The notes under the pieces were generated by a model, which was given only the letters and a program-made list of their open reading frames with translations, did no database searches and was not told the origin of the DNA. A program made the position numbers and the translations under genes. From assembly GCA_017654935.2 (NCBI GenBank), contig CM065690.1, positions 9,600,906 to 9,664,905 on the forward strand: a DNA stretch of 64,000 nt, written 5' to 3'. Positions 312-61,737 of this stretch are shown in pieces (position 1 is the first letter of the stretch; each line of letters begins with the position of its first letter). The stretch is from Phymorhynchus buccinoides. Its lineage: Eukaryota > Mollusca > Gastropoda > Neogastropoda > Raphitomidae.

Positions 312-15386
<15,075 letters not shown>

Positions 15387-26091: not shown

Positions 26092-26226
26092 ATGAAGATG
26101 TCATTGTTTAACGACTGTCAGATTGCTCTCGACCTCGGCTACAATGTTGGTTTTAAGAAGAAGGCGGAGCTTCGCAAAACCATCATTGAGCATGGGGGCA
26201 TAGTGTCCTACATCGTCACCAAGAAG
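26092..26226 (+). CDS. PARP4: PARP4 exon 1 (start codon, BRCT N-terminal half)
   Basis: 135 nt directly after a TTGATTTCAG acceptor encode [20 protein letters not shown] and then [14 protein letters not shown], the first half of a BRCT fold. Since an acceptor precedes the ATG, an upstream non-coding exon is expected. An alternative start is the Met two codons on. Confidence 0.88.
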
Positions 26227-31612: not shown

Positions 31613-31648
<36 letters not shown>

Positions 31649-34376: not shown

Positions 34377-34409
<33 letters not shown>

Positions 34410-35978
34410 CTGTCTGTGTGTGTGTTGTTATGTTTTTCGTACAAGATATAAAGACTTGAACACTGCTCATGTGTTTGTCTAAGTTTATTGTCACTAGAGA
34501 GCTTGACTGTAATAACGCTGTTATGAGGGGCTGGCGAGGAAGTGTGCACATGCACACATAATTAGCGTGAAGGCCATTAACTGTTACTAAGCAACGCTGC
34601 ATGTGTGTGTGTTTGCGAGTGTATGTAAGGTGTGATGGCCTGTTCTTGTTCATATTTATGGATGCATTAGATATTATTTAACCCCTTCGATGCCAAGCCT
34701 GTTTCCCGTTCTGAGGCAACTATTTGCCAAGCCGTTTTAGGTTGCGAAGTCTATCGCAAAAAGGATAGAAAAAGGGAAACTCTTAGAATAACCCTATGAC
34801 GGATATTTCCGTGATGGGGCAGTTTATAGGTTACCGGAACTTGACGGAGATATCCGTGACGGGGCAGTGAAGAGGTTAATGATTGTTATTCCTTTGGCTG
34901 TGTAATCATTGCAGAGACATTGGCTTAAGCATCACCAGTGTGTATACCGTTCAACGACCCATCGAGGATCAGGCCTTTTGCCATGAGCTGCACAACAAAC
35001 GACACCTCTACCACTCTTCCAAAGTGGAGAACTTTCTGGGAATTCTGTCCAGGTCAGTTCCATCTCACAATCTTGTCAATTATGTTTTGGTGTTTTCTAT
35101 TACCACAGACTTGTGAAATTCGGGTCGCTCCCGCCAGGAGAGCGTGTCGCTGCTAGTGCAGTGCAACTCATTTTTGCCATGCTATGTGAGTTTGCGTCAT
35201 CCATCCCACCGACACAACACGGCCTACTTCTACAGAATAGTGGAATGGGCTTTAACGTGTGTGGGCAAGATCTTGTGCATGCGTTCACGTATGGGACCGC
35301 GGTTTTAAGTCTCATCTGAAGATCTAGGAAATAGGAGTAAAGTGTCTTTCCCAAGGACGCAACACTGCGGATGGAGCTGGGTTTGAATCCCCGCACTCGC
35401 AAACTTGTTGGATTATGAGCCGGCGACTAACCAACCGAGCGGGCGACTAGCCAACAGTAAAAGTGTGTGTGTGTGGTGTGTGCGTGCGTGCATGCATGCG
35501 TGTGTGTTGATATTGCGAAATGTAGGATTTCCGATCAGATTGGTGTGTCTAATGTTTGTTTTCCACATTTTGTTTTGTTTGTTGTTTGCCCTTTGACACC
35601 TTGTTCATGTAAGTCTGTTGTTTGTTGGTTGGTTGGTTTTTCAATATCTTGTGAAGCGCAGAATCATGTAAAAGTTTGATTGGTGATGCAAAATAGTTGT
35701 GTGAAACAATCAGTGGTCTGTTTTTTTCAGAGGGCTGCTGCTGCCCAAAGTTGTTGTGGACGACCATGGGGGGACAAGGTCAGACCCCGGCATGCTTGGA
35801 AGTGGCATCTACTTTGCCAGCGCCGCCAGGTGAATATTGGATATAGCATTCTTCCTATGTGACATTATTATATAATGTCTGTTGTGATAAATATTGAATG
35901 ATAATACACACACACGCACACACGCACGCACGCATGCACGCACACGCACATGCACACGCACGCACACACACACGCACA

Positions 35979-36013
<35 letters not shown>

Positions 36014-47300: not shown

Positions 47301-50300
47301 TATTATTATCATCTTTTTTTGTAGTCATATTTCTTCTTCTAAAAGTACTCTTCATTTTGGGTTTTTTTGATTGGAATGGGAAGGTTGTCAGTACAGACAA
47401 ACCCCTATTTTACGTGTTGCTTTGGTGTGCTTTCTGTTTGGTGCAACCACCTCTCATTTGAGACTGGATTTGTTGGCACAGATGCATTTTACTATGTAAA
47501 CGACCTCTCTTAAACAAATTTTCCTCTAAAACGTTCACTTACGACCGCCATTTTGTTGGTTTTTACTACCGTTGTTGTCGTCTGCATAGACTTGAGCAAA
47601 GGGAAACAACCACGGTCAAGGGCCTGAAAGCGGAGTCGCTTACCTTGTTGTAGAAAAGATGGCGGAAAGCGTAGGAAAAGCACGAAAACCTTCACTGACT
47701 TTGAAAAAGAAAACCTACTGACTTTGGACGAGAGTGGAGGTGATTAACAGAAGTCTGCGAAGTGAAACTGTAATACATCGATTGCACAATCCTATGGAGT
47801 TGGAAAGACCCAAATCCAGTTTTAATATGTCATGGTATGTGTGTGCATGAAGAAGAGAGTATGAACTGTGCTGAACTTTTTCTTTCTACGGCTGCCAGTG
47901 AAAACCTCCGTCATACGACCCCTCCAATTTACGACCTTTTTTGATTTTTCTTCCGGACATTTTGGAAGTCTTTGGTTGGAAATAGAGGGTTGTCAGTATC
48001 TGCATGCTCAAAGTGCTGTTAACAAAGACAATGATCCCTGTAGACATTAGTTAGGGGTGTTTGTAGATATGGGATGCACACAATAACGGGTCATATTCAT
48101 AATCCATTCAATTAGAGAATCTTGCGTGGTAGAGGGAAAAAACGTTCTGTGGACAGCTTTCTCCACGGTCAGGCTAAAGAGAACCAGTGCCACATCTTAC
48201 TGGGATAAACATATTGCCGCAATACAACATTGACCCAATTTGTTGCTTCCTCTAATAAGTAATTCATGTTTTTTCAGCAAGTAAACAACGGAAGGTATGC
48301 TTATTTTTTCTTGATGTTTATGGTTTGATCTTTTTCTGACTGTCCGGTGCATCATATTATAAGGCATGCCCCCAAACTAAAAAAACAACAAATAAGATTT
48401 TGCTTTAACAGTTTCTTAGCATAATTATTAACCCTTTCACCGCCAAAGTCGCATTTTAGCACCACAGTGATTTAACACCTATGTCATTAAAAGGCATCAA
48501 ATTGGGGTCTATTATCCAAAGACCCTATTGTCTTAGTTTTGGGAAGTAAGGATAGACCTTATTTTATATATGTCACAGAAGAATCTCCAATACTGCAGAT
48601 GGATTTTATTCTCTACCCAGGTAAATTTAATGGACATTTTTCGCTGAAATGTGGCTGGCGGTGAAAGGGTTAATCATATAATAAGGCGCAGGAGTCTCAG
48701 ACTTGAAGAAAAATATATCGCTTTATAGTCTGTAAAATACGGTATTTAATGAAAACCAACAAAACTTTGTTCAGGTTGCCTGGGCTGACATGGGAAACAC
48801 GGAGGTGTTTCGTCCCCTGCACGCTTACTTCCTCCTTCCCCCTGCAGAGGGCAGCACCAGAAACGTGCTGCTGATATCGGACGGGCACCTGAACAACGAA
48901 ACGGCGGTGCTATCCAGCGCCCGCAGGAACTACCAGAGGACCCGCATATTCACCTTCGGCGTGGGGTGAGGCAGGAAGGGAACAGTGTGGCTGTGACATG
49001 CTTGAATGTGAGAGAAAGTGTGGTGAGGCTTGAGTGAAAGGCAGGTTATTAGTGATGCAACAGTCTATGAATGCATAAGTCTGTATGTATTGACACGTGT
49101 GTGGTGTGTGTCAAGTCAAGTCAAGTCAAAATTTTATTTCCAGATGGAACATTGAATAAGCAAATAATGTGTGTGTGTGTGTGTCAAAGTCAAAGTCAAT
49201 TTTTTTATTTTCAGATGGAACATTGAATAAGCAATAATGGTTTGCTTTGTTTACATCAAGCCATCTATAACGCAACAATTAAAGAAGGAAATAAACATGA
49301 TCCCCCCACACACACACAAAAAAAAAGCATTAATAAGTTCATGCACACATACCCCCCCACCCACCCCCACTAACTTACTCTAATATGCCACACTCTTTGA
49401 CTCTGCCTTTTCCCTTTGCCTTCTATCATGTGCTATCTTTCTGACTTATTGGCCCATTCTCCTGCCTTTTGTTTTTCAAAAACAATCTTCCAAATAATTT
49501 TTCTCCTTTGAGCTCCTCCGAAATCGGAATGTGTCGGCTGTGCGCAGCGGGGAGACCAGTGAAAACTGAAAACCGGACACATACGTACTTTACCCATTAT
49601 GGCCATATGGCCTGGGAACGCGGAAGAAGAAGAAGAAGAAGAAGAAGAAGCTGCTTTTCTTTTCAGCTCCACCTGCAATGCCTACACCCTGAAAGCCTTA
49701 GCGCGGGTGTCGGCCGGTGACTACGAAATGTTCGACACCAAGGCCAAGTCCAAGTGGGAGGAGAAGGTGGCGCGCCAGCTGGCCAAGGTGGGCCAGCCGG
49801 GGCTGACGTCGGTGGCCGTGGAGTGGCGTCAGTATGACCACAACTTGCCCCCCCCTGTGCAGGCCCCGCGGCGGATCACCGCTCTGTTCAACGGCACGCG
49901 CCAGGTCGTCTACGGCTTTGTGCCCAACTGCACCATGGTGAGTCCTGGCAAACAAGGTTTGTGGGCAATGTGGTACTTTAAGCACCCCCTTCCCCTCAAA
50001 TGTTCACATTGAACATTTTCACTGAGAAGGAGCATTCTGCCATTCGTGAAAAAAAGGATAGGGTTAGGATCAGCCTAGAGCTATTGTCATGAAATTGAAA
50101 GAAGCAGACTTTGAGATTGAGAGTTGTAAACATGAGGTGGATGTCTAAAGTACATGTTTGCCCTTTTGTATCCCATGATGTTGCTGACGGCCTGATCAGC
50201 TTGACTCAGCAGGTTATCTAAGGCTTTGTGCCAAATCGTACAGTGGTGAAGATCATCAGGGCTCCCAGGGACCCCCCCATTTGGGGGTCTATGAAGTACT

Positions 50301-54000: not shown

Positions 54001-56320
54001 CCGTGTACACATACATGCTGATGTTCCGCGCAGAAACCAGTGTGCAATCAGTAAATAAGTAAAAGGAACAAGGGGAAAAAATATACACACATGTCCGTAT
54101 TTCCCCATATCCATCTATTTGTTTCCTTCTTTTACTTATTGATTATTTCCGCGTGGAAAATCAGGATGTACTGTGTACTAGGCTTAAGAATGAAAGTGTC
54201 TTTTCTTCCCGCAAGAACACAACATTGAGCTGAGCGGGATTCATCGGTACCATCAATGGCCTGACTATAAGTATGAAATATATACGTGAAAAGTTGCCAC
54301 ATCAGGGGAGTTTGGTATCTTTTTGTTCTGGTTAAGCAAAATATGAAAGGCAGAAATTTCAAGATAGTTACAATAAGGCCGGGTTCACATTAGATGTGTA
54401 ATTTCTGTACGGAAAACCCTAAATAAATGAAAGAAAGAAGGATAAAAGTTTACGCATATAGGGGAAATTCGGACACGTGCGCAAATCTTTTCCCTTCTTT
54501 GTTTCACTTATTTATGGATCGCGCACAGGTTTCCGCATGGAATATCCGCTTATGCGTGTACACGGCCTAAGAATGAATAACTGCAAGCATGTTGTGTGCA
54601 TGCTGTAGTTTTTGATAGATGCCATTGGATTAGTGCTAACTCCAGTAGCACTGAAGCTGCTGCGCTGTGTTGTGTTGTTGCAGCTGGCCAAGATGAACGA
54701 GAAGCAGGACATCGTAGAGCTGAGCAAGGAGTACTCCATCGTCACCCAGTTCACCTCCTTCGTGGCCATTGAGAAAAGAGACAAGGTGGGTGTCTTGGGA
54801 CAGTAGCCTGAACTTTGGGCCAGCAGTAAAGTGAGAGGGATGAGAGCTGTACGACACATTCAACCCAAACTGGTATAGAAGTATTCCTCTACGGTCCCTT
54901 AACAGTTTTCTAACCATGAAATGACTTTTAGTCTATTTTAAGGTTGGTAATGAATGAAAGCGAGTCACTACCCCCTTCTTCTTTGTCATGCTTTTTTTGC
55001 AAAACGCCATTAATCGGCCTGTAATAAAAATTTTACTTTGGAACTTTAACAGATGTTAGCTTTTATTATTATAAATAATGCCACAAACTTTTAAAACTGT
55101 GCCATTAAGCATTATTTTAAAACTAATTTTTATGTAATGATGCAAACCTGCCTAGTGTTGAAGTGTGCGAGATGCATGCTATAGCGTACTCTTGTGTAGA
55201 GAGTTTTTATTGCTTCATTAATAACATACATCTGTATTGTTAAAAATTCGGGACTTTCCTGGAGTTGCACTGCCTCCGGGCATTGTCTCCAGGATCGTTC
55301 CCACCATCTTTATATCTACTAATGTCCCATATGTGTCTGTTTCAGACCGGAGGACGTTAAACGGATTTTCATTCATTCGTGTAGAGATTTAAAAAAAATA
55401 TGCTTTAAAAAAATTATGTAGATCTTCATCAATTAAAAATTTGGGACTTTCCTGGTATTGCAGTACCTCCAGGATCATCCCACTATCTTTATATATATTA
55501 TTAATGTCCCACATGTGCCTGTTCCAGGCCGGAGGACGTTAGTCGGATTTTCTTTTGGTGTAGAGAGAGTTAGAGTTAACAGAGGCTGTGCGTGTGTGTC
55601 TGTTACCAGGACGAAGACCTCAGTCAGAAGAAAGGACCGCAGATCATGGACCTGGTCAACACAGAGTCTGTGGACATCCTCAACTACATGGCCTGGCCAG
55701 AGGTCAGTCTGTCTGTCTGTCTGTCTGTCTGTCTCTTTCTTTAATGGTCAACACAGAGTCTGTGGACATCCTCAACTACATGGCCTGGCCAGAGGTCAGT
55801 CTGTCTGTCTGTTTGTCTCTTTCTTTAATGGTCAACACAGAGTCTGTGGACATCCTCAACTACATGGCCTGGCCAGAGGTCAGTCTGTCTGTCTGTTTGT
55901 CTCTTTCTTTAATGGTCAACACAGTCTGTGGACATCCTCAACTACATGGCCTGGCCAGAGGTCAGTCTGTCTGTCTGTCTGTCTGTCTCTTTCTTTAATG
56001 GTCAACAGAGTCTGTGGACATCCTCAACTACATGGCCTGGCCACAGCCTGAACAGGTCAGTCTGTCTGTCTGTGCGGTAGGTATTATTAGGATTTAGGTA
56101 CATTATAGTCACAGAGGCGTCTGTGTGAAATTCGTGTTGCTCCCACCTGGAGAGCGCGTCACAGCCAGATGCGCGCCACCCAATTTTTTTTTCAAAAAAA
56201 TTTTCATGCGATTTTTGTGTGACTGATAAGGAAGGAAAGGGGTGGGTGGGTAAATTTGGACCAAATGAAAACTTTTTCGTTGCCACTGGGTTTAACATAT
56301 GCTAAGTGCATGGGCACACG

Positions 56321-56351
<31 letters not shown>

Positions 56352-59300
56352 TGTGCCTGTCTGTTCTCTGCCTGTCTGCCTGTCTCTTTCTTCCTTTTCG
56401 TTTTCCCTTCCTTACACCCATCCTTCTTTTCGTTTTCCCTTCCTTACACCCATCCTTCGTTTCGTTCTTTCTTTCTTTTCGTTTTCCCTTCCTTACACCC
56501 ATCCTTCTTTTCGTTCTTTCCTCCTTTTTTTGTTATTTTTCTTTCTTTCTACCTGGCTAAGAAAGGTTCTTTGGAAATGTTGAAGTACATTGTGTGGCCA
56601 GAGCTGGAACAAGCTGGTTGGTTGGTCTGCTCGTCTGCTTCTTTGTTTGTTTCTATCTCTTTTTTTTAGATTTGGTCGAGACAGAGTGTGTGGACATCTT
56701 CATCTATTTGTCTTTTCATCCATCCATCTATCCATCCATCCCATCATCTCACCACATCACACCCACCCACTTATTTGCCTATCTGTTTTTTGGGTCTTTT
56801 TTCTCTGGTTGACCGTCTGTTGATCTGTTTCTTTCCCTCTTTTCCGCCTCCCTTCAGTCGTTTAATTGCTCTATCATTCTTTTTTTCTTTTTTTTCTTCT
56901 TCCTTCTTTGATACTAATAATAACAATGAATATTTAGGGCTCTTAATCTTGACAAAATCCCTAAGCGCTTACAATCATAATAGAAAAGAATACTAAAAGA
57001 ATGAAGCAATAAATAACATACAAACGCTCACACTCAGACACACATACACACAAACACACATATGCGCGCTCATGCGCCCCCCCCCCCCCCCCCCCCCCTC
57101 CCCCCCCCCCCCCCCCTCCCCTACAAGCACACACACCCCACACTTGGGGCACACAGACACACTTTCATTTATTTTGTTATTTATCTAGCCAGAGAAACGG
57201 TCAGCGACGGTCAAGCTGTACGTGAAGACCCTGACAGGAAAAACAGTGACAGTGAGCTCTGAGGACAGCCAGGCGGTGGAGGACCTGAAGCGACAGATCC
57301 AGGACAGGGAGGGCATCCCCCCGGACCAGCAGCGCATCGTGTTTGCCGGCAGGCAGCTGGTGGACGGCAGACTGTTGTCCGACTACAACATCACTGACGA
57401 GAGCACCGTGCATTTAGTGCTCAGGCTGAGAGGTAGGCCAAACCTGCTCCCCTTTGGTAAGCTTTTGGGACTGTCTTCCCTGCCTCTGTTGAGACTGTCC
57501 TTCCTGCCTCTTTTGGGACTGTCTTCCCTGCCTCTGTTGGGACTGTCCTTCCTGCCTCTTTTGAGACTGTCTTTCCTGCCTCTTTTGAGACTGTCTTTCC
57601 TGCCTCTGTTGAGACTGTCTTTCCTGCCTCTTTTGAGACTGTCTTTCCTGCCTCTTTTGAGACTGTCTTTCCTGCCTCTTTTGAGACTGTCTTTCCTGCC
57701 TCTGTTGAGACTGTCCTTCCTGCCTCTTGAGATTGTCCTTCCTGCCTCTTTTGAGACTGTCTTTCCTGCCTCTTTTGAGACTGTCTTTCCTGCCTCTTTT
57801 GAGACTGTCTTTCCTGCCTCTTTTGAGACTGTCTTTCCTGCCTCTTTTGAGATTGTCTTTCCTGCCTCTTTTGAGACTGTCTTTCCTGCCTCTTTTGAGA
57901 TTGTCCTTCCTGCCTCTTTTGAGACTGTCTTTCCTGCCTCTTGAGATTGTCCTTCCTGCCTCTTTTGAGACTGTCTTTCCTGCCTCTTTTGAGACTGTCT
58001 TTCCTGCCTCTTTTGAGACTGTCTTTCCTGCCTCTTTTGAGACTGTCTTTCCTGCCTCTTTTGAGATTGTCTTTCCTGCCTCTTTTGAGATTGTCTTTCC
58101 TGCCTCTTGAGATTGTCCTTCCTGCCTCTTTTGAGACTGTCTTTCTTTCCTGCCTCTTTTGAGACTGTCTTTCCTGCCTCTGTTGAGACTGTCTTTCCTG
58201 CCTGTCTTCCTATTTTAGGCATGAGGTTTTTCACCCTTTATACTCATTTCTGCCTTTTCGATGGCCCCCAATAATATTTTTTGAGATCGAAAAGAAACTA
58301 ACCAAGTGTATAATTACTTCTTATGAGTATAATATGTAAAAAAGACTAAATTATATATCAAGTTTTTTAATGTTGTTTTCAAGGCTTAGCCCCTTCGCCG
58401 CCAGCCATTTTTTTAGCCCAAATTACCCAATGTTTGATGCATGGCATAGTTGTAGCGGGTCATGTGGCCTATACATTAATATTTTTGAGTATTGAGTATC
58501 TTTTTCTAAATATTTACACAGGCGCATATGCAAAAAATATCCACTTTGAAGTCAAAATCAATGTTAAAATCTTATTTTGAGATGAACATTAAATAAACAA
58601 AGATGATTTGCTTTTTTTTTTCATCAGCGTGTGTAATGCACGTTGAGTCTTTTTCTTCTTGTGAGTTATGAATGGTCGACACGAGACGCACTCAAAGATC
58701 TGTAAATGTGGGTTGGGCAGAATCCAAACTGTATGTGTGTTGTGTCTTTGCACGTTGTTTTTTGTCTTTGTTGGTCCAGGAGGGCCGGGACCGGAGGAGC
58801 TTCAATCACAGAACAGTGAGTGCCTCTGTTTCTGCCTTGCTTCTGAAGAAAATGAATAATGTATGTGCTGCATTGTTAGTATAGGAATGAACAGGCTCTC
58901 TGTGTTGTGTAGTCCTCTTCATAAGTCATAGGCTTCTGAGGAAAATGAATAATGTATGTGCTGCATTGTTAGTACAGGAATGAACAGGCTCTCTTTGTTG
59001 TGTAGTCCTCTTCATAAGTCATAGGCTTCTGAGGAAAAGGAATAATGTATGTGCTGCATTGTTAGTACAGGAATGAACAGGCTCTCTTTGTTGTGTAGTC
59101 CTCTTCATAAGTCATAGGCTTCTGAGGAAAATGAATAATGTATGTGCTGCATTGTTAGTACAGGAATGAACAGGCTCTCTTTGTTGTGTAGTCCTCTTCA
59201 TAAGTCATAGGCTTCTGAGGAAAGTGAATAATGTATGTGCTGCATTGTTAGTATGAACAGGCTCTCTTTGTTGTGTAGTCCTCTTCATAAGTCATAGGCT

Positions 59301-61737
59301 TCTGAGGAAAATGAATAATGTATGTGCTGCATTGTTAGTACAGGAATGAACAGGCTCTCTGTTGTGTAGTCCTCTTCATAAGTCATAGGCTTCTGAGGAA
59401 AATGAATAATGTATGTGCTGCATTGTTAGTACAGGAATGAACAGGCTCTCTGTGTTGTGTAGTCCTCTTCATAAGTCATAGGCTTCTGAAGAAAATGAAT
59501 AATGTATGTGCTGCATTGTTAGTACAGGAATGAACAGGCTCTCTTTGTTGTGTAGTCCTCTTCATAAGTCATAGGCTTCTGAGGAAAGTGAATAATGTAT
59601 GTGCTGCATTGTTAGTATAGGAATGAACAGGCTCTCTGTGTTGTGTAGTCCTCTTCATAAGTCATAGGCTTCTTTCTTTATTGTCCACTGGCATTGTACA
59701 ACGCACATGGGAAACTTGTCTTCCAACGTGTAAAATAAGATGAGATATATCAAAATAAAAATATGGGTAAAGGTCAAGATGTGCAACCCCCCCCCCCCTA
59801 CCTATCTCGGTGAATTCTATTTTTCCGTTATTGCCTTTCTTACCATACATAAAGCTCTATTTTAGGAACATTTTTAGCTAATAACCTTTTTGGAATACTA
59901 ACCCTAACCCTAACCCTAGCCCTAACCCTAACCCTACCCCCCACCCTATAAGACGGAAAAACGCAACGAACCACAACTGTGACAAATCGCGGTGTACTGC
60001 AGTACATAGTGGGGGGTAGGGTTAGGTTTAGGGCTAGGGTTAGGGTTAGTATTCCAAAAAGGTTATTAGCTGAATATGTTCCTAAAATACAGCTTTATGT
60101 ATGGTAAGAAAGGCAAAAACGGAAAAATAGAATTAACCGAGAAATGCAGGGGGGGTGGCACATCTTTACCTTTGCCAAAATATGAAATACAAATAAAAAT
60201 CTTCCCCCTATTCCCTTTATTGGCTTTATATAAAAACACACAATGGCAGCAACAACGAAAAAGGATTCAATAAGAAATGCAACGCTAACCGCAGTTTTAA
60301 ATCTTAACGTTTTGATGTCATGATTCTGCCGTCCACGACGTATATATACGTCCTCTATAGCGCTTCAGTACTTGCCACCGACGTATATATACGTCGCCGC
60401 TAAGTAGCGATATTGCCTCGTTCAAATATTGCGCGGCAAGCCAGCGGCACATGCGTAAGTAGTAGGCGGCAGCGAAGGGGTTAATTCACATTAGGCCTTG
60501 TGCCCAGAAGATCCGCAATCGGCAAGTTCCATACGGAAACCCCACACACTTATCACACTTATAAGAACTAAGCGGATGGGATTACGGAGGGGTTTCCGCG
60601 TGTAGTGGGCACACTCTTTCATATTTCTTACTTCCTGATATGTTTGTGGATTGTGCATGTGTTTCTGTGCGGAACTTGCTTGTATATGTGTACACTGCCT
60701 AAGGCTTATGATGAATGTTTCTGAAAACTACATGTGCTTCTCACAAGGTGGGGTAATTGGATCGGGGTAATTAACGCACAGACAAAGTGGGCAATTGGAG
60801 TGTTTGCTGCACTAGCACAGGACATGTTTTAGTGCTGGTTGGGCTTTTGTTGTGTGGGATCTGACCACATGCCGTCACTCACCGATAATTACATCCCTTT
60901 GCTTCTCCCTGATATCCAAAAGTTCTATGGAAACGCAAAGAACAACAACCCTTTAGATCTGATGACATGCCGTCACTCACCGATAATTACATCCCTTTGC
61001 TTCTCCCTGATATCCAAAAGTTCTATGGAAATGCAAAGAACAACAACCCTTTAGATCTGACGACATGCCGTCACTCATCGATAATTACTCCCCTTTACAT
61101 CTCCCTGATATCCAAGAGTTCCAGGGAAATGCAAAGAACAACAACCATGAGAAACTCTGACGACATGCCGTCACTCAATAATTACAAATCCAAGAGTTCC
61201 AAAACATTTAGATCTGAACTCATCGATGCATCTCCCTGATATCCAAGAATGTGTCCCATTCTATAAGAGCACGATGGAACACATTGGTGTTTAGTGCACG
61301 CAGAGTGAAACCTGCACCTAACCATGACCTAAGCCACTGATGGTTTTATTATTTTCAAGCTTGTACGCTTGCAGGAGCCCTCAAGCAGACAGCACATTTG
61401 TCCACGGGAGGTAGTGCTCCTCCCCCCAAAGCACTGGCTTTTCAGAGAAGAGCGATGATTGAAGAGAGTTCAGAGTTTGATGATTGGAGTGATGAGAGTG
61501 GTGAGAGTGCTGCTTCCTCAACCTCTTCAGAAGGCGAAATGGCAGAAGATGGAGAAGAAGAAGAATCAGAGTCTGGAGAAGAAGAAGAAGAAGAAGAAGA
61601 ATCAGAGTCTGGAGAAGAAGAAGAAGAATCAGAGTATGGAGAAGAAGAAGGAGGCAAGGGGAAGGGGAGGAAGACAAAGCCACCCAGATTGGAGGAGATG
61701 GATTCTGACGAAGAAGCTGGAGCGTTTGAGTGCCTTG
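26092..61737 (+). CDS. PARP4: PARP4 (vault PARP) with embedded ubiquitin-like domain (28 exons, 3' end outside window)
   Basis: Mono-ADP-ribosyltransferase that in vertebrates is a component of the vault ribonucleoprotein particle. Twenty-eight exons join in phase into 1448 codons plus one base. Domain order: BRCT (about residues 1-105); linker; PARP regulatory helices (about 268-395); ART catalytic domain (about 426-600) with the H-Y-E triad kept in YHSS, GSGIYF and DDEYVVY; VIT domain (about 618-830); vWA domain (about 884-1060) with MIDAS DVSNS; the PARP4-typical region after vWA (to about 1234); a 76-residue ubiquitin-like domain (1242-1317); and an acidic Ser/Glu segment (1328-1448). The order up to the vWA and following region is that of human PARP4. 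The ubiquitin-like part is not present in human PARP4 as I know it. The MVP-binding C-terminus would lie right of the window. Confidence 0.95.
26228..26820. other. PARP4 intron 1, left part
   Basis: AT-rich intron with a poly-C run (about 26587-26614); nothing else recognised. Confidence 0.6.
26820..27098. repeat. 26-bp minisatellite, about 11 copies
   Basis: Unit ATAACCTCATTGCACATA(A/T)CCTCATT in PARP4 intron 1; the A and T variants alternate. Confidence 0.95.
27336..27534 (+). CDS. PARP4: PARP4 exon 2 (BRCT C-terminal half)
   Basis: 199 nt encode [40 protein letters not shown] and [18 protein letters not shown] is the Trp/aromatic-type end of a BRCT domain. The donor reads GTGCTC, a poor match, so the exact exon end is less certain, but joining exon 3 here keeps the frame. 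Confidence 0.88.
28187..28336. repeat. Interspersed element, left part
   Basis: CATACCCTGGCTAAAAGACT and GAGAACATTACATGTGTGAC match 45755-45910; it ends 30 bp before PARP4 exon 3. Confidence 0.75.
28366..28520 (+). CDS. PARP4: PARP4 exon 3 (linker)
   Basis: 155 nt encode a basic and Ser-rich linker followed by [12 protein letters not shown], matching the EVAKY block that precedes the WGR-like region of PARP4. Confidence 0.9.
28697..28741. repeat. Interstitial telomere-like repeats
   Basis: About 45 bp of CCCTAA-type hexamers with two variant units (CCCTAT, CCCTAG), in PARP4 intron 3. Confidence 0.9.
29332..29475 (+). CDS. PARP4: PARP4 exon 4
   Basis: 144 nt encode [20 protein letters not shown] and [14 protein letters not shown], fitting the region between BRCT and regulatory domain. 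The donor is GTTAGT. The exon end with its donor is imperfectly copied at 29636-29690. Confidence 0.87.
29515..29940. repeat. (CT)n and GT-rich microsatellites
   Basis: A CT tract to 29574, then long GT/GC-rich stretches, interrupted by the copied exon 4 end. Confidence 0.9.
29636..29690 (+). pseudogene. Imperfect copy of PARP4 exon 4 end
   Basis: ACTCCCACTTAGGAAAACTT and GGATGTGCTGGTTAATGG repeat the end of exon 4 and its donor with about one change in five, 165 bp downstream across CT and GT tracts. Confidence 0.7.
30002..30169 (+). CDS. PARP4: PARP4 exon 5
   Basis: 168 nt encode [20 protein letters not shown] and [15 protein letters not shown]. The acceptor is TATGCAG and the donor GTATTG. 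The homologous human part ends in a similar Lys-rich helix. Confidence 0.88.
30783..31006 (+). mobile_element. SINE-like repeat ending AGGACGTAAAACACCATTT
   Basis: Contains AGCAGTGCCATAGCCGACGA and CCTCCGGGCATTGCCTCCAG; near-identical copy at 53404-53609, tail-only copies at 55205-55372 and 55424-55552. Confidence 0.78.
31282..31419 (+). CDS. PARP4: PARP4 exon 6 (regulatory domain start)
   Basis: 138 nt encode [20 protein letters not shown] and [14 protein letters not shown], aligning with the PARP4 helical segment that has the Ile-Trp-x-Glu-Ala pattern. The human protein has about 30 more residues just before this; they are absent here or lie in an unrecognised small exon. Confidence 0.9.
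31612..32358. repeat. GAT-rich microsatellite region
   Basis: (GAT)n blocks at 31614-31650 and from 31890 to 32350. Long Asp- or Met-rich open frames here are repeat artefacts. Confidence 0.92.
32360..32442 (+). repeat. Copy of PARP4 exon 7 acceptor and exon start
   Basis: The acceptor GTGAACTGCAG and the next 20-odd bases of exon 7 occur twice, 83 bp apart, with GAT-rich sequence before each. The upstream copy runs into an in-frame TGA after a few codons, so the downstream one is taken as the exon. Confidence 0.85.
32443..32619 (+). CDS. PARP4: PARP4 exon 7 (regulatory helices)
   Basis: 177 nt encode [32 protein letters not shown] and SRKQDLCQ, matching the FYR.IPH...K.DLC pattern of the PARP regulatory domain. 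The acceptor lies at the end of a (GAT)n-rich stretch and is duplicated 83 bp upstream. Confidence 0.94.
32713..33056 (-). mobile_element. tRNA-derived SINE, near-complete
   Basis: From 33056 leftwards: a tRNA-like head, a body with GGGCACACGGGATCGCAGTT on the plus strand, a poly-G tract, then the tail with GAGAGCGTGTCGCAGCC. It lies in PARP4 intron 7. Confidence 0.8.
33097..33275. repeat. Fragment of CGTATTTT-type MITE and CA tract
   Basis: TTAGGCGCACCTCCCCAAAT and ACAAGGCGTATGGGTCTCAG match the 37.45-kb element; a CA microsatellite follows. Confidence 0.6.
33272..33507 (+). repeat. Duplicated intron end and acceptor before PARP4 exon 8
   Basis: About 105-130 bp ending in the acceptor GTGTGTGTAG, plus the first 26 bp of exon 8, occurs twice in tandem (acceptors at 33370 and 33507). 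The first copy breaks off after the codons for LIKDMISV. Confidence 0.9.
33508..33668 (+). CDS. PARP4: PARP4 exon 8
   Basis: 161 nt encode [30 protein letters not shown] and FKNVREDLM, matching LIRDM...KYRALRC of PARP4. Both edges are duplicated: an extra acceptor at 33370 and three further donor copies up to 34057. Confidence 0.94.
33713..34057 (+). repeat. Three tandem copies of PARP4 exon 8 3' end with donor
   Basis: Units of 124 bp (the first spacing is 141 bp) each contain the last 70-80 bp of exon 8 and a CTGTTGACAG/GTTGGT donor. Exon-like ends fall at 33809, 33933 and 34057, after the true one at 33668. Confidence 0.93.
34185..34430. repeat. CA- then GT-rich microsatellites
   Basis: ACACACA-rich sequence to 34370 followed by a GT tract; the two could pair as an imperfect hairpin in PARP4 intron 8. 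Confidence 0.9.
34678..34880. mobile_element. MITE with TTAACCCCTT-type ends (M3)
   Basis: Ends TTAACCCCTTCGATGCCAAG and GGCAGTGAAGAGGTTAATG; the body carries two GACGGATATTTCCGTGA/GACGGAGATATCCGTGA motifs. It ends about 35 bp before PARP4 exon 9. Confidence 0.65.
34915..35052 (+). CDS. PARP4: PARP4 exon 9 (ART domain, catalytic His)
   Basis: 138 nt encode [16 protein letters not shown] and [16 protein letters not shown]. The His of YHSS is the first member of the H-Y-E triad; the usual HGS is HSS here. The donor is GTCAGT. Confidence 0.93.
35103..35455 (-). mobile_element. SINE with the same tail but a different tRNA-like head
   Basis: The tail (CGGGTCGCTCCCGCCAGGAG, GAGCGTGTCGC) is shared with the family at 32.7 kb. 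The head on the minus strand reads TTGGTTAGTCGCCGGCTC and GGGGATTCAAACCCAG, an A/B-box pair of another tRNA type. It is in PARP4 intron 9. Confidence 0.7.
35461..35510. repeat. GT-rich tract
   Basis: GT/GC-rich microsatellite directly after a SINE head. Confidence 0.85.
35731..35829 (+). CDS. PARP4: PARP4 exon 10 (ART domain, catalytic Tyr)
   Basis: 99 nt encode [18 protein letters not shown] and [11 protein letters not shown], a close match to the RGLLLPKVV...LGSGIYF block. The Tyr of GIYF is the NAD-stacking residue of the triad. Confidence 0.95.
35905..36012. repeat. (CA)n microsatellite
   Basis: CA tract with interspersed CG in PARP4 intron 10. Confidence 0.93.
36298..36481 (+). CDS. 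PARP4: PARP4 exon 11 (ART domain)
   Basis: 184 nt encode [31 protein letters not shown] and [12 protein letters not shown], matching K.Y...R.LL..VALG.C and the GY.SVHG motif before the donor loop. Confidence 0.95.
36817..36970 (+). CDS. PARP4: PARP4 exon 12 (ART domain, catalytic Glu)
   Basis: 154 nt start with [20 protein letters not shown]; the Glu of DDEYVVY is the third triad residue. The acceptor is TGTTCCAG and the donor GTAGGT. Confidence 0.95.
37033..37374. repeat. Long inverted repeat (hairpin)
   Basis: Arms of about 115-125 bp: CTGACTATTGACCACTGCAA and GATCAGTATCCAAAAGGGCA on the left; TGCCCTTTTGGATACTGATC and TTGCAGTGGCCAATAGTCAG on the right. The loop (about 37150-37245) contains ACTAAATACTTC repeats also found in the elements at 41799 and 51929. 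Confidence 0.88.
37445..37619. mobile_element. Palindromic MITE, complete (CGTATTTTCCGGAC ends)
   Basis: Left ACCGTATTTTCCGGACAATA, right TATAGTCCGTAAAATACGGT, with AAGGCG/CGCCTT motifs inside. Fragments at 25774, 33097, 42890 and 48345. Confidence 0.85.
37620..37675 (+). pseudogene. Decayed fragment of PARP4 exon 13
   Basis: ATGAAGGCAGTCTAGTGGCT then GGACAGTGAAGCTGAATG follows the order of the GTGAAGGCCGGCCTGGTGGC region of exon 13, with a stop codon and indels. It adjoins a palindromic MITE. Confidence 0.6.
37733..37838 (+). pseudogene. Decayed copy of PARP4 exon 13
   Basis: Reads [20 protein letters not shown] and AQVQLRAS in the exon 13 frame, against [20 protein letters not shown] in the real exon 700 bp downstream. 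No proper acceptor or donor was seen. Confidence 0.8.
38041..38430. repeat. GT and GA microsatellites of PARP4 intron 12
   Basis: (GT)n at 38044-38070, about 32 GA units at 38257-38321, and a GT tract at 38392-38431 that ends next to the exon 13 acceptor. A short AAGTTCAAGTTCAAGT repeat is at 38073. Confidence 0.92.
38435..38562 (+). CDS. PARP4: PARP4 exon 13 (VIT domain start)
   Basis: 128 nt encode [20 protein letters not shown] and [14 protein letters not shown], the first strands of the vault inter-alpha-trypsin (VIT) domain. Decayed copies lie upstream at 37620 and 37733. Confidence 0.92.
38690..38888 (+). mobile_element. Interspersed repeat family B
   Basis: PARP4 intron 13 copy: GGAGACCAGTGAAAACTGAA, CCGGACACATACGTACCT, ending GAACGCGGAAGAATAAG. 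Confidence 0.75.
39144..39368 (+). CDS. PARP4: PARP4 exon 14 (VIT domain)
   Basis: 225 nt encode [37 protein letters not shown] and [17 protein letters not shown], the diagnostic VIT signature. A 1.6-kb, 35-bp minisatellite begins directly after the donor. Confidence 0.96.
39375..40990. repeat. 35-bp minisatellite, 1.6 kb
   Basis: Unit GTGCGGTATGGTACAGTATC plus GTGCAGTACAATACA, about 45 copies with deletions and variant edge units, beginning 6 bp after the PARP4 exon 14 donor. All or most frames are open on both strands, so very long predicted proteins over it are artefacts of composition. Confidence 0.96.
41018..41165. repeat. (CA)n and (AACAC)n microsatellites
   Basis: CA blocks alternating with AACAC repeats, following the 35-bp array. 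Confidence 0.95.
41306..41470 (+). CDS. PARP4: PARP4 exon 15 (VIT domain end)
   Basis: 165 nt start with [20 protein letters not shown] and continue TYVAEL...RLPGSVAPW, nearly identical in pattern to the vertebrate VIT end. The donor is GTCGGT. Confidence 0.96.
41799..41917. mobile_element. Short MITE with CATGGGAATTGTC ends
   Basis: CATGGGAATTGTCCGCGAAT left, CTGACAATTCCCATGCCTGG right, and two ACTAAATACTTC motifs inside; a relative lies at 51929-52077. Confidence 0.82.
42044..42157 (+). CDS. PARP4: PARP4 exon 16
   Basis: 114 nt encode [20 protein letters not shown] between VIT and vWA, matching the conserved E-M-P segment. The acceptor is TTCTTGCAG and the donor GTGAGC. Confidence 0.92.
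42890..43004. repeat. Diverged fragment of the CGTATTTT MITE
   Basis: GTATAAGGCGATGCTTTTTA and ATATCACCTTATATTCGGAA fit the element loosely. Confidence 0.45.
43024..43085 (+). pseudogene. Copy of PARP4 exon 17 acceptor and start (distal)
   Basis: CTGCTTAGTAATGTCTGTTG, then GAACGGCGTCCAAGGC and GGGAGGGGAGGACAAC, repeat the exon 17 start but lack the AG acceptor and diverge into the 14-bp minisatellite. Confidence 0.8.
43045..44030. repeat. 14-bp minisatellite, about 60 copies
   Basis: Unit CAACTGTCAATG(G/T)A, with G and T variants intermixed, from the distal exon 17 copy to 16 bp before the real exon 17. Frames over it ([10 protein letters not shown] type) are artefacts. Confidence 0.96.
43933..43999 (+). 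pseudogene. Copy of PARP4 exon 17 acceptor and start (proximal)
   Basis: Starting TCCTGCTTAATGTCTGCCAG, this is identical to the true exon 17 start through the GGGAGGGGAGGACA codons, then joins the CAACTGTCAATG minisatellite. It has a usable acceptor 100 bp before the real one. A shorter trace with the same TCCTGCTTAATGTCTG block lies at 43707. Confidence 0.88.
44039..44176 (+). CDS. PARP4: PARP4 exon 17
   Basis: 138 nt encode [20 protein letters not shown] and [12 protein letters not shown], matching the CKAV...PRMWVE.HP block. The acceptor and first 40-50 bp of the exon are copied upstream within a 14-bp minisatellite. Confidence 0.94.
44200..44345 (-). mobile_element. SINE tail fragment
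   Basis: Shares GTCACAGAGGCGTCTCTGTG and GGAGAGCACGTCGCAGCC with the 32.7-kb SINE; the tRNA-like head is missing. PARP4 intron 17. Confidence 0.75.
44455..45230 (+). mobile_element. Penelope-like element remnant with GIY-YIG domain
   Basis: Broken frames read [15 protein letters not shown], then [40 protein letters not shown] and [16 protein letters not shown]. This is the C-terminal GIY-YIG endonuclease region of Penelope-like retroelements (pattern Y-I-G-E-T-G-R...R..EH...EAI.I....P.LNRD.G). Stops are frequent; it is a dead fragment in PARP4 intron 17. Confidence 0.82.
45490..45676 (+). CDS. PARP4: PARP4 exon 18 (vWA domain, MIDAS)
   Basis: 187 nt encode [29 protein letters not shown] and [14 protein letters not shown] is the DxSxS metal-ion-dependent adhesion site of a vWA domain. 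Confidence 0.95.
45755..46057. mobile_element. Interspersed element with CCCTGGCTTAA / TTAAGCCAAGG ends
   Basis: GTACCCTGGCTTAAAGACTC left, CAGCATTAAGCCAAGGCG right. A left-end copy is at 28187 and a right-end copy at 21466. It splits a GTGTGATTGCTTTG repeat. Confidence 0.75.
46058..46695. repeat. 27-bp minisatellite of PARP4 intron 18
   Basis: Unit GTGTGATTGCTTTGTTGGTG plus TGTTTGA with deletion variants, over 20 copies. The intron sequence right after the exon 18 donor (GAGTGCGATTGCTTTGTTCA) looks like a founding unit. Confidence 0.94.
46811..46884 (+). CDS. PARP4: PARP4 exon 19 (vWA)
   Basis: 74 nt encode [20 protein letters not shown] and EKFIK, continuing FGT-xYKELF of vWA. The acceptor is TTCTCCAG and the donor GTATGT. 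Confidence 0.93.
46886..48340. other. PARP4 intron 19, left part
   Basis: No recognised gene. GGTTGTCAGTACAGACAAAC at 47385 and AGGGTTGTCAGTATCTGCAT at 47986 may mark an element, but I could not find inverted ends. Confidence 0.4.
48345..48745. mobile_element. CGTATTTT-type MITE split by an M1 MITE
   Basis: CGGTGCATCATATTATAAGG left half; ATAATAAGGCGCAGGAGTCT and GTCTGTAAAATACGGTATTT right half; M1 sits in between at TTAA. The right end lies 30 bp before PARP4 exon 20. Confidence 0.8.
48428..48673. mobile_element. Palindromic MITE family M1, nested
   Basis: Complete copy in reverse orientation, splitting a second MITE (family with CGTATTTT ends) at 48345-48745 in PARP4 intron 19. Confidence 0.83.
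48775..48965 (+). CDS. PARP4: PARP4 exon 20 (vWA)
   Basis: 191 nt encode [28 protein letters not shown] and RIFTFGVG. The MGNT threonine and the SDGH aspartate complete the MIDAS set. Confidence 0.94.
49108..49260. repeat. Two copies of a short retroposon end
   Basis: TCAGATGGAACATTGAATAA occurs at about 49141 and 49213, each preceded by TCAAGTCAAGTC or TCAAAGTCAAAG repeats and a T-rich run. Confidence 0.7.
49400..49651 (+). mobile_element. Interspersed repeat family B abutting an acceptor
   Basis: The most complete copy. It ends in (GAA)n directly before the CTGCTTTTCTTTTCAG acceptor of PARP4 exon 21. Confidence 0.8.
49667..49937 (+). CDS. PARP4: PARP4 exon 21
   Basis: 271 nt encode [34 protein letters not shown] and [14 protein letters not shown], matching PARP4 after vWA (...R.L....VYGF.P.CT). 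The acceptor lies directly after the (GAA)n tail of an interspersed repeat. Confidence 0.94.
50258..50479. mobile_element. MITE with AGGGCTCCCAGGG ends
   Basis: TCAGGGCTCCCAGGGACCCC left, ACGATTGGGAGCCCTGGTCA right; inner GGACCCTCT motifs. PARP4 intron 21. Confidence 0.72.
50862..51230. repeat. GT-rich microsatellite region
   Basis: Long GT runs with GC interruptions; all predicted Cys/Val-rich or His/Thr-rich frames here are artefacts. Confidence 0.95.
51282..51362 (+). CDS. PARP4: PARP4 exon 22
   Basis: 81 nt encode [20 protein letters not shown] and LAVTSGL, matching the MVSTTELQ...TG segment. The donor is GTGAGT. Confidence 0.9.
51492..51590 (+). mobile_element. SINE tail fragment, opposite orientation
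   Basis: The tail of the same SINE family in reverse (GCGACGCGCTCTCCAGGTGG, then ATGCCTCTGTGACTATAAAG), in PARP4 intron 22. Confidence 0.72.
51600..51760 (-). repeat. Interspersed repeat family C
   Basis: Reversed copy; the minus strand reads GATTCTGCGACCTGAACG and GTGGCTGCGAATTGGGATTC. It begins after a poly-T tract. Confidence 0.7.
51929..52077. mobile_element. Short MITE with CATGGGAATTGTC ends
   Basis: Same ends as at 41.8 kb with a poly-G tract inside, PARP4 intron 22. Confidence 0.82.
52136..52367. mobile_element. Palindromic MITE family M1
   Basis: Diverged copy in PARP4 intron 22; ends TTTAACCCTTTCACTGCCAA and GGCGGCGAAAGGGTTAA. Confidence 0.8.
52370..53160. other. PARP4 intron 22, right part
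   Basis: A (GATGAT)n stretch at 52545-52612 and AT-rich DNA; no gene seen. Confidence 0.55.
53162..53242 (+). CDS. PARP4: PARP4 exon 23
   Basis: 81 nt encode [20 protein letters not shown] and DDRTRHE, matching the H.LAARALI.D.E.G.L block. The acceptor is CTGCGCAG and the donor GTATGG. Confidence 0.92.
53404..53609 (+). mobile_element. SINE-like repeat ending AGGACGTAAAACACCATTT
   Basis: Near-identical to 30783-31006 (AGCGGTGCCATAGCCGATGA...GGTTACCGCTACACC), in PARP4 intron 23. Confidence 0.8.
53695..53885 (+). repeat. Interspersed repeat (AT-rich, TGAATAAAATAACGTCAC end)
   Basis: Shares TTGCTGTTTGCTGTTTTCTT and GATAAAGGCGCATTCGCC in reverse with 11.0-11.16 kb. Confidence 0.75.
53995..54186. 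mobile_element. MITE family M4
   Basis: AATAAGGCCGTGTACACATA at the left and GTACTGTGTACTAGGCTTAA at the right; the interior is itself palindromic around AAGTAAAAGGAACAAGG. Confidence 0.75.
54375..54571. mobile_element. MITE family M4
   Basis: AAGGCCGGGTTCACATTAGA left, GCGTGTACACGGCCTAAG right; shares GTTTACGCATATAGGGGAAA with the 8.05-kb copy in reverse. Confidence 0.8.
54684..54785 (+). CDS. PARP4: PARP4 exon 24
   Basis: 102 nt encode [20 protein letters not shown] and [14 protein letters not shown], the strongly conserved [16 protein letters not shown] motif shared by VIT/vWA proteins. Confidence 0.96.
55205..55372 (+). mobile_element. SINE-like repeat, tail fragment
   Basis: ATTCGGGACTTTCCTGGAGT, GCCTCCGGGCATTGTCTCCA and CGGAGGACGTTAAACGG; diverged relative of the 30.8-kb repeat. 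Confidence 0.7.
55424..55552 (+). mobile_element. SINE-like repeat, tail fragment (second)
   Basis: TTTGGGACTTTCCTGGTATT and CCGGAGGACGTTAGTCGG, ending 55 bp before PARP4 exon 25. Confidence 0.68.
55610..55702 (+). CDS. PARP4: PARP4 exon 25
   Basis: 93 nt encode [16 protein letters not shown], fitting the VD.LPYM.W segment at the end of the conserved region. The first donor (55702) is used because reading on meets a stop within about 15 codons. Four further copies of the exon end follow. Confidence 0.9.
55744..56055 (+). repeat. Four tandem copies of PARP4 exon 25 3' end with donor
   Basis: Copies of the last 45-50 bp of exon 25 plus the GTCAGT donor and a (CTGT)n tract end at 55794, 55878, 55960 and 56055, after the true end at 55702. 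The third lacks 4 bp. The last has a different end (WPQPEQ instead of WPE), closer to the Q-rich vertebrate sequence, so it may hold the ancestral exon end. Confidence 0.92.
56085..56352 (-). mobile_element. SINE, head-truncated
   Basis: Body and tail of the 32.7-kb family (GTCACAGAGGCGTCTGTGTG; GGGCACACGGGACCTCGG; CGTCTCATCCGAAAGACT) without the tRNA-like head, directly after the exon 25 repeat array. Confidence 0.78.
56380..56560. repeat. CT-rich tandem repeat
   Basis: Units with CCCTTCCTTACACCCATCCT and TCTTTTCGTTTT repeated four times with variable lengths. Confidence 0.85.
56565..56720 (+). pseudogene. Possible further decayed copies of PARP4 exon 25 end
   Basis: GAAATGTTGAAGTACATTGT followed by GTGGCCAGAGCTGGAACAAG resembles the [12 protein letters not shown] unit, and AGAGTGTGTGGACATCTTCA at 56687 resembles TESVDIL. 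Similarity is partial. Confidence 0.5.
57074..57120. repeat. Poly-C tracts
   Basis: C runs broken by single T, 70 bp upstream of the ubiquitin-like exon; a sequencing-unstable stretch. Confidence 0.93.
57189..57432 (+). CDS. PARP4: PARP4 exon 26 (ubiquitin-like domain)
   Basis: 244 nt encode [19 protein letters not shown] and then a full ubiquitin fold with [31 protein letters not shown] and VLRLRG. Together with the first codons of exon 27 it aligns to ubiquitin over exactly 76 positions without a gap. K6, K11 and K27 are kept; positions 33 and 48 are Arg, 29 is Gln and 63 is Asp. The L8, V44, H68, V70 surface is kept. It is preceded by exon 25 and followed by exon 27 in phase, so it is read as part of PARP4 rather than a separate gene: there is no ATG at ubiquitin Met1. 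Confidence 0.9.
57455..58205. repeat. 24-bp minisatellite, about 30 copies
   Basis: Unit CTGTCTTTCCTGCCTCTTTTGAGA directly downstream of the ubiquitin-like exon. Because 24 is a multiple of three, the frame of the ubiquitin-like exon stays open into it for about 170 codons. Confidence 0.95.
58385..58440. repeat. End fragment of an M-type MITE
   Basis: TAGCCCCTTCGCCGCCAGCC resembles the left end of M1 to M3; no matching right end was found nearby. Confidence 0.4.
58780..58815 (+). CDS. PARP4: PARP4 exon 27 (Gly-Gly mini-exon)
   Basis: A 36-nt exon after TTGGTCCAG completes the codon split at exon 26 to give LRLRGG followed by [10 protein letters not shown]. It ends in phase 1 before GTGAGT and joins exon 28 in frame. 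It is too short for gene finders relying on length; its support is the exact restoration of the ubiquitin Gly-Gly end. Confidence 0.78.
58845..59672. repeat. 93-bp tandem repeat, about 9 copies
   Basis: Unit CTTCTGAGGAAAATGAATAA, TGTATGTGCTGCATTGTTAG, TACAGGAATGAACAGGCTCT, CTTTGTTGTGTAGTCCTCTT, CATAAGTCATAGG, starting 30 bp after the exon 27 donor. Confidence 0.95.
59758..60185. mobile_element. Large palindrome with telomere-like repeats in both arms
   Basis: Left arm 59758-59945 and right arm about 60010-60185 are nearly perfect inverted copies (left TCTTACCATACATAAAGCTC and AGCTAATAACCTTTTTGGAA; right TTCCAAAAAGGTTATTAGCT and AGCTTTATGTATGGTAAGAA). Each arm ends towards the centre in CCCTAA/TTAGGG-type repeats. 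The loop is about 65 bp. A MITE-like element is the simplest reading. Confidence 0.9.
60310..60485. mobile_element. MITE-like element with ACGTATATATACGT palindromes
   Basis: Two GACGTATATATACGTC palindromes and a GGCAGCGAAGGGGTTAATTC end similar to M1-M3. PARP4 intron 27. Confidence 0.55.
60483..60706. mobile_element. MITE family M4
   Basis: ATTCACATTAGGCCTTGTGC left and GTGTACACTGCCTAAGGC right, with GGGTTTCCGCGTGTAGTG inside. Confidence 0.7.
60855..61240. repeat. 115-bp tandem repeat, three to four copies
   Basis: Unit with GACATGCCGTCACTCACCGA, TAATTACATCCCTTTGCTTC and TGATATCCAAAAGTTCTATG; the last copies are shortened. Confidence 0.92.
61375..61737 (+). CDS. PARP4: PARP4 exon 28 (acidic Ser/Glu-rich)
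   Basis: 363 nt after GCTTGCAG stay open in the phase set by exon 27. They encode a short basic stretch, [20 protein letters not shown], runs of Glu with SESGEEE repeats, and [18 protein letters not shown]; the donor is GTAAGC. The Glu runs come from GAAGAAGAA microsatellite-like DNA. No domain is recognised; it is probably a disordered, CK2-phosphorylatable linker. That it belongs to the same transcript is inferred from phase. Confidence 0.75.

What the first reader, a model, noticed from the sequence alone, without database searches (positions are those of the whole stretch)
57189..58815. A complete ubiquitin-like domain inside PARP4, ending in Gly-Gly
Exons 26-27 add a 76-residue, gap-free match to ubiquitin after the vWA-associated region. 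LRLRGG is restored across an intron by a 36-nt mini-exon. Residues forming the hydrophobic patch (L8, V44, H68, V70) and K6, K11, K27 are kept; K48 and K63 are replaced by Arg and Asp, and Met1 by Val. Human PARP4 has no such domain as far as I know. A PARP carrying its own ubiquitin-like module could recruit ubiquitin readers or proteasomes to vaults, present Gly76 for ADP-ribosylation, or be cut after Gly-Gly by a deubiquitinase; the residue after Gly-Gly is Pro, which usually slows such cleavage. That the exons are one transcript rests on phase and order.
Basis: partly seen in the sequence, partly recalled or inferred. Interest (0 to 1): 0.88.

Follow-up and report, generated by a model that had tools for sequence, protein, structure and literature searches.

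The report
Ubiquitin look-alike inside vault enzyme PARP4
A snail's version of the vault enzyme PARP4 appears to carry a built-in copy of ubiquitin, and relatives carry pieces of other core cell proteins in the same region, which suggests that the enzyme may use them as baits.

Summary
Exon 57189-57432 plus a 36-nt exon (58780-58815) encode a gap-free 76-residue ubiquitin-like domain (51/76 identical to ubiquitin; Pfam 2.1e-25), in phase inside a PARP4 gene. A pseudogene is unlikely: skipping the exon breaks the frame, and 34 of 201 retrieved PARP4 proteins (24 of 67 named non-vertebrate genera: molluscs and one sponge) carry the domain after the vWA region. LRGG is kept in 26 of 30 aligned domains although identity to ubiquitin falls to 22-57 of 76; Pro follows GG in 16 of those 26, so an in-line ubiquitin that is mostly not cleaved is likelier than a precursor. 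The wider result: the PARP4 tail is an array of pieces of ultra-conserved proteins. Different species hold actin 2-72, 14-3-3, calmodulin, Hsp70, synaptobrevin, histone H3 and H4 tails, and the ribosomal P-stalk tail. The window itself has an H3-tail-like peptide 11 residues after GG. I infer a bait or integrated-decoy array; binding is untested. Ubiquitin-related, 14-3-3 and actin domains in some PARP4-like proteins were reported in 2014; the theme was not found in my literature searches.

The parts
26092..27542 (+). PARP4 N-terminal and BRCT exons (matches at 26092-26274 and 27333-27542)
   Evidence: tblastn with Babylonia P0149 and Nucella P0001; Pfam BRCT_2 1.7e-4 on the second piece, below its curated cut-off
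31273..36969 (+). PARP4 regulatory and catalytic exons; the H (YHSS, near 35000), Y (GSGIYF, 35732-35827) and E (DDEYVVY, 36817 on) of a PARP H-Y-E triad are kept, read by eye
   Evidence: tblastn; triad positions recalled from human PARP4 and read
39141..41470 (+). VIT domain (two exons)
   Evidence: Pfam VIT 2.4e-26 on the first exon and 2.5e-4 on the second; a joined piece matches solved human PARP4 at 2.3e-11
45487..49937 (+). vWA domain and following exons (45490-45676, 46783-46884, 48775-48965, 49667-49937)
   Evidence: tblastn; Pfam VWA_2 1.5e-4 and VWA_3 8e-3 on single exons, below the curated cut-offs
54684..55702 (+). two exons just upstream: ...YSIVTQFTSFVAIEKRDK and DEDLSQ...SVDILNYMAWPE (phase 0 at 55702)
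57189..57432 (+). ubiquitin-like exon, residues 1-75 of the domain (Gly75 is split by the intron); 244 nt, enters phase 0, leaves phase 1
   Evidence: Pfam ubiquitin 2.1e-25; PDB ubiquitin matches of the joined domain; phases and frame test
58780..58815 (+). 36-nt exon that completes GlyGly, then PGPEELQSQN
   Evidence: AG|GAGGGCCG...AACA|GTGAGT, phase 1 to phase 1; GGP tail shared with relatives
61375..61732 (+). next exon in phase: ALKQTAHLSTGGSAPP, like the histone H3 tail, at 61377-61424, then an acidic stretch; the 3' end of the exon is my choice
   Evidence: best match to H3 2-17 in all six frames of the window (score 45, next 30); 1 of 20000 shuffles of the region reaches it

Best explanation
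The domain is a conserved ubiquitin copy fused in line into PARP4 (shown by sequence; expression not shown). It is one module of an array of fragments of ultra-conserved host proteins that lies C-terminal to the vWA region of invertebrate PARP4s (shown by sequence). Most likely it works as a bait: it presents the ubiquitin hydrophobic patch and the RLRGG tail to ubiquitin-directed proteins, pathogen effectors being the candidate selective force, while Pro after GG keeps the module from being cut off (inferred). The PARP catalytic domain, which keeps its H-Y-E triad here, or the vault partner TEP1 could then act on or report the captured protein (inferred, untested).
For: The domain lies after the vWA region in 34 of 201 PARP4 proteins (33 of 174, 1 of 27). 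Its distance from the YMxW motif is steady within lineages: 8-14 residues in caenogastropods, 134-137 in heterobranchs and Gigantopelta, 84-91 in bivalves, 117 in Dysidea; 28 of 33 proteins fit (P0013 reads 5, P0160 a stray motif far upstream, and P0158, P0159 and P0169 no motif) (group names recalled). LRGG is kept in 26 of 30 rows; mean identity of columns 72-76 to ubiquitin is 0.91, reached by 0.0004 of 20000 random 5-column draws (rows are not independent). Panel matches by genus, of 67: actin 24, ubiquitin 23 (24 with Crassostrea), 14-3-3 11, calmodulin 5, Hsp70 5, VAMP 3, H3 3, H4 1; of 151 panel hits, 89 lie after the vWA-associated motif, 0 before it, and 62 are in proteins where the motif was not found; reversed sequences give hits only for the RNA polymerase CTD (8), shuffled ones none, and I do not count the CTD. 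Dreissena holds H3 residues 2-17 exactly, Mercenaria H4 4-22 at 18 of 19. In 7 of 7 pairs compared the modules are more alike than the rest of the tail.
Against: No binding, cleavage, expression or infection data. Very conserved proteins are the ones easiest to recognise, and the panel was my own choice, so the set may be biased. Modules being more conserved than linkers is expected of any folded domain beside disorder. Babylonia and Bradybaena have lost the tail, and Batillaria and one Dysidea isoform lack GG. 21 of 67 genera show none of the eight panel modules, some perhaps because their proteins are truncated. The domain tree is mostly unresolved and places ubiquitin itself among the PARP4 rows, so repeated capture is not excluded. 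That these proteins are common effector targets is recalled knowledge, not tested here.
Confidence: 0.45

Rival explanations
1. An ordinary integral Ubl: the module docks host ubiquitin receptors (proteasome, p97 adaptors, deubiquitinases) and so brings vaults or PARP4 to protein turnover.
For: L8 in 27, R42 in 26, H68 in 21 and V70 in 28 of 30 rows are as in ubiquitin; Ile44 in 14, mostly Val otherwise.
Against: Does not explain the actin, H3, H4, calmodulin, Hsp70 and VAMP pieces in the same region. Integral Ubls usually lose the GG tail (recalled), but 26 of 30 keep LRGG.
Confidence: 0.3
2. A processed precursor: a deubiquitinase cuts after Gly-Gly and splits PARP4, freeing a GG-ended N-terminal part that could be conjugated.
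For: LRGG kept in 26 of 30 rows; 7 rows have GGG, 2 GGL and 1 GGH, which could be cut.
Against: Pro follows GG in 16 of 26 rows, the window included; Pro at that place usually blocks deubiquitinases (recalled).
Confidence: 0.12
3. Substrate or regulator mimicry: the modules imitate normal substrates or partners of PARP4 and tune its own ADP-ribosylation.
For: The pieces sit in the same chain as an apparently intact catalytic domain.
Against: Sets differ strongly between lineages and between two PARP4 proteins of one species (Mercenaria P0007 and P0162, Nucella P0001 and P0145), odd for a conserved self-control.
Confidence: 0.1
4. An artefact: a processed ubiquitin pseudogene or a gene-model fusion.
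For: Only genome sequence is at hand for the window, and the relatives are mostly predicted proteins.
Against: Open, in phase, required for frame, and present in the same region in 24 genera.
Confidence: 0.02

Closest known systems
Human PARP4 / vPARP
   Same: BRCT, PARP catalytic, VIT and vWA order (recalled sequence); flanking sequence on both sides of the insertion can be aligned by eye
   Different: no ubiquitin-like domain and no H3-like peptide between vWA and the C-terminal part, in the recalled sequence
Clade 5 PARPs with extra domains (Perina et al. 2014, PMC4245714; passages and section 3.1.2 seen)
   Same: that paper reports 14-3-3, actin and, in two Acanthamoeba proteins, ubiquitin-related domains
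   Different: no hit for 'mollus' in its main text; the section seen names no LRGG tail, H3, H4, calmodulin, Hsp70, VAMP or P-stalk pieces and draws no common theme
Plant NLR immune receptors with integrated decoy domains (search listings and abstract openings only)
   Same: domains like those of host target proteins fused into one receptor family, varying between lineages
   Different: no NLR core, no proven effector binding, and pieces of ultra-conserved proteins in an ADP-ribosyltransferase of the vault
Integral Ubl domains such as those of Rad23, USP14 or parkin (recalled)
   Same: in-line ubiquitin fold inside a larger protein
   Different: closer to ubiquitin itself (51/76) and keeps LRLRGG

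Membership tests
PARP4 (clade 5 PARP) | BRCT, PARP catalytic, VIT and vWA in this order | tested here: met
   ordered exon matches to PARP4 proteins; Pfam on single exons, only VIT above its cut-off
PARP4 (clade 5 PARP) | PARP H-Y-E catalytic triad | tested here: met
   read by eye against recalled human positions; activity not tested
PARP4 (clade 5 PARP) | C-terminal MVP-interacting region | not testable with these tools
   not found in the window, where the gene may run past the end; the tool for the window's own genome was unreachable
Ubiquitin family domain | match over the whole ubiquitin profile above the curated cut-off | tested here: met
   88.7 bits against a cut-off of 25.4, profile 1-72 of 72
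Ubiquitin (conjugatable modifier) | C-terminal Gly-Gly that can be freed | tested here: inconclusive
   LRLRGG present if the 36-nt exon is used; Pro follows
Ubiquitin (chain former) | Lys48 and Lys63 | tested here: not met
   Arg and Asp in the window; K63 in 1 of 30 rows, K48 in 18 of 30
Integrated decoy receptor | homologues of host proteins fused in one region, differing between lineages | tested here: met
Integrated decoy receptor | the fused domain binds an effector and triggers defence | not tested

The most novel reading that the evidence does not exclude
Invertebrate PARP4 is a vault-borne immune receptor whose tail is a changeable array of integrated decoys: ubiquitin, the actin N-terminal part with its D-loop, histone H3 and H4 tails, calmodulin, 14-3-3, Hsp70, synaptobrevin and the ribosomal P-stalk tail. 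Each imitates a host protein that pathogens attack, and capture is coupled to ADP-ribosylation or to the vault NADase TEP1. The snail gene in this window carries the ubiquitin decoy followed by a decayed H3-tail decoy.
Probability: 0.35. Interest if true: 0.96.

Novelty: new variant of a known kind. Interest (0 to 1): 0.82.

Why it matters
Vaults are abundant and conserved, yet their function is unknown. A 2026 preprint (PMC13174449, passages seen) reports that the vault protein TEP1 is a TIR-like NADase and proposes a role in innate immunity. An array of host-target look-alikes in the other vault enzyme, PARP4, would supply a sensing side and makes the question directly testable in molluscs. 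A ubiquitin that keeps its tail but is shielded by Pro would also be a natural example of an in-line, mostly uncleavable ubiquitin.

Tried and rejected
Pseudogene or assembly artefact: unlikely, by frame and by relatives. NEDD8 origin: 34/76 against 51/76 for ubiquitin. A ribosomal P-stalk-like stretch in the window (EMDSDEEAGAFE): not convincing, 487 of 20000 shuffles reach it. RNA polymerase CTD repeats: not counted, because reversed sequences give 8 hits, although Pfam's own repeat model passes its cut-off in Antedon. Tree of the short domains: 7 of 29 inner branches well supported; ubiquitin falls among the PARP4 rows, so it neither shows nor excludes one single origin. No structure prediction was run, since 67% identity to ubiquitin leaves little doubt about the fold. 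The first script for the motif scan timed out and was rewritten.

Limits: the three protein searches list only the best 120 of 986, 852 and 273 hits. The genus table was made from the 177 proteins of the first two searches (174 after 3 polyubiquitins were dropped); genera were read by me from the listed names, and vertebrates and unnamed proteins were left out of it. 27 further proteins were scanned. The 30-row table is the window plus 29 proteins; it drops P0005, P0009, P0011 and P0167 as second models or isoforms and does not include P0178. Some genera have only short proteins that may stop before this region (Pomacea 1175, Haliotis 1249, Candidula 1139 and 827, Lottia 990 residues), so absence is not shown there.

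Full report
What is there. The exon at 57189-57432 and a 36-nt exon at 58780-58815 together encode a 76-residue ubiquitin-like domain. The match to Pfam ubiquitin is 2.1e-25; 51 of 76 residues equal ubiquitin and 34 of 76 equal NEDD8. The gene around it is PARP4: tblastn with Nucella P0001 and Babylonia P0149 gives an ordered chain of exons from 26092 to the domain, and a recalled human PARP4 gives the same order from 31279 to 55696. Pfam finds VIT above its cut-off and BRCT, PARP and vWA pieces below theirs on single exons. The nearest protein is Nucella lapillus, 75% identical over 95% of the query, so the organism is probably a related snail.

Is the exon part of the transcript? No RNA is at hand. 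Three sequence arguments say yes. The exon enters in phase 0 and leaves in phase 1; leaving it out, with or without the 36-nt exon, brings a stop at codon 71 or 59 of the joined piece. The next exon, from 61375, is in phase. And the same domain lies in the same region of annotated relatives. The Gly-Gly is less certain: a donor at 57456 scores about as well as 57432 (4.6 against 4.1), and the 36-nt exon can be skipped in frame; both variants lose LRLRGG.

Relatives. Three protein searches gave 204 proteins, the listed best of larger hit sets; three are polyubiquitins and were dropped. Of the other 201, 34 carry the domain by the local panel scan: 33 of 174 and 1 of 27. They fall in 24 of 67 named non-vertebrate genera (23, plus Crassostrea): gastropods, bivalves and the sponge Dysidea. 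None of the 34 is a vertebrate protein. I aligned 29 of them with the window, leaving out second models. Identity to ubiquitin runs from 22 to 57 of 76. LRGG is kept in 26 of 30; the four without it are Batillaria, one Dysidea isoform, Babylonia and Bradybaena. After GG comes Pro in 16, Gly in 7, Leu in 2 and His in 1 of the 26. The five tail columns average 0.91 identity to ubiquitin; 0.0004 of 20000 random five-column draws do as well, though the rows are related. K27, G10 and G47 are invariant; K63 is kept in 1 of 30.

The wider setting. Hits with a domain E-value under 1e-3 include actin residues from 2 to about 73, 14-3-3 residues about 120-240, calmodulin 7-147, Hsp70 383-535, VAMP 29-91, H3 pieces 2-28, 5-32, 18-45 and 30-58, and H4 3-22. 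By genus: actin 24, ubiquitin 23, 14-3-3 11, calmodulin 5, Hsp70 5, VAMP 3, H3 3, H4 1, of 67; 21 genera have none of these eight. Of 151 hits (the RNA polymerase repeat and P-stalk tail included), 89 lie after a motif that marks the end of the vWA-associated region, none before it, and 62 lie in proteins where the motif was not found and so were not placed. Reversed sequences give hits only for the RNA polymerase repeat (8), shuffled ones none, so that repeat is not counted. Pfam was run on 26 of these proteins. Above the curated cut-offs it finds ubiquitin, actin, Hsp70, EF-hand, 14-3-3 and synaptobrevin pieces, and in addition Snf7 (Dysidea, Mytilus), clathrin propeller (two Mytilus) and PDZ (Branchiostoma). 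Acidic ribosomal protein and Prp8 pieces stay below their cut-offs. Several of the 26 show no extra family at all (for example Patella P0134, Sinanodonta P0126, Lineus P0146, Trichoplax P0163).

Short peptides. Against one shuffle per protein, with a margin of 3 above the best shuffle, 9 of 174 proteins have an H3 2-17-like stretch and 37 of 174 a ribosomal P-stalk-tail-like stretch. Dreissena P0133 has RTKQTARKSTGGKAPR, which is H3 2-17 exactly; Ylistrum P0158 has five copies of an H3 2-31-like piece; Mercenaria P0162 has H4 4-22 with one change in 19. In the window the exon that follows the ubiquitin-like domain reads ALKQTAHLSTGGSAPP, 11 residues after GG. It is the best H3 2-17 match in all six frames (score 45, next 30) and 1 of 20000 shuffles reaches it. 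Littorina P0002 has RTNQTARMSTGGKAPA 15 residues after its GG. Nucella P0001 shows no such peptide (it scores 17).

How it may work. Shown by sequence: the domain, its place, its tail and its company. Inferred: the module is not cut (Pro after GG), presents the ubiquitin patch and tail, and binds ubiquitin-directed proteins. A single docking role for ubiquitin does not account for the other pieces. One idea covers them all: they imitate host proteins that many pathogen proteins attack (recalled knowledge), and lineages swap them. That is the logic of integrated decoys in plant NLRs (listings only). The 2026 preprint on TEP1 (PMC13174449, passages) reports an NADase in the vault and proposes an immune role, which would give such a sensor an output. 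None of this has been tested by experiment.

What is known. Citarelli 2010 (PMC2964712, passages) describes clade 5 with BRCT, PARP, VIT and vWA. Perina 2014 (PMC4245714, passages and section 3.1.2) reports 14-3-3, actin and, in two Acanthamoeba proteins, ubiquitin-related domains. Public databases already list the Pfam ubiquitin family for many of these mollusc proteins, so the domain itself is not hidden. Searches for PARP4 with ubiquitin-like domain, decoy, integrated decoy, histone H3 tail, bait and the named modules listed no paper that, from what was shown, draws the modules together. Of the listed papers I looked into four by passages; the rest were not opened, and most subscription papers are not held.

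Verdict. As a domain in PARP4 it is a new variant of a known kind; the decoy-array reading would be new, with a probability near 0.35.

Noticed in passing
window 55735-56051 and about 56570-56640: Several partial tandem copies of the exon 55610-55702 (TESVDILNYMAWPE) follow it, and a diverged copy (SLEMLKYIVWPELEQ, by eye) lies further on; possible alternative exons or a repeat born from the exon.
   Followed up: partly
window 9701-10018, minus strand: Looks by eye like a myosin motor exon (SIVVSGESGAGKTESTKYILRYL) on the opposite strand; other minus-strand pieces between about 219 and 5870 may belong to it.
   Followed up: no
window 22420-23700, plus strand: Reverse transcriptase-like reading frame of a LINE-type element, by eye.
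   Followed up: no
window 57460-58200 and 58870-59660: Tandem repeats fill much of the intron after the Ubl exon and of the intron after the 36-nt exon; a CCCTAA-rich stretch with what look like inverted arms lies at about 59840-60110 (by eye).
   Followed up: no
Dysidea avara P0031 and P0039: Two models, listed with contigs of the same length, carry different ubiquitin-like domains at the same place (55 and 39 of 76 identical to ubiquitin), perhaps alternative exons; P0031 also holds a copy of the actin C-terminus (DDEGPSIVHRKVF).
   Followed up: partly
fish PARP4 P0085 (Fundulus) and P0100 (Anableps): Ribosomal P-stalk-tail-like stretches (ESDDDMGFGAFD, ESDEDMGFGLFD) also occur in some vertebrate PARP4s.
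   Followed up: partly
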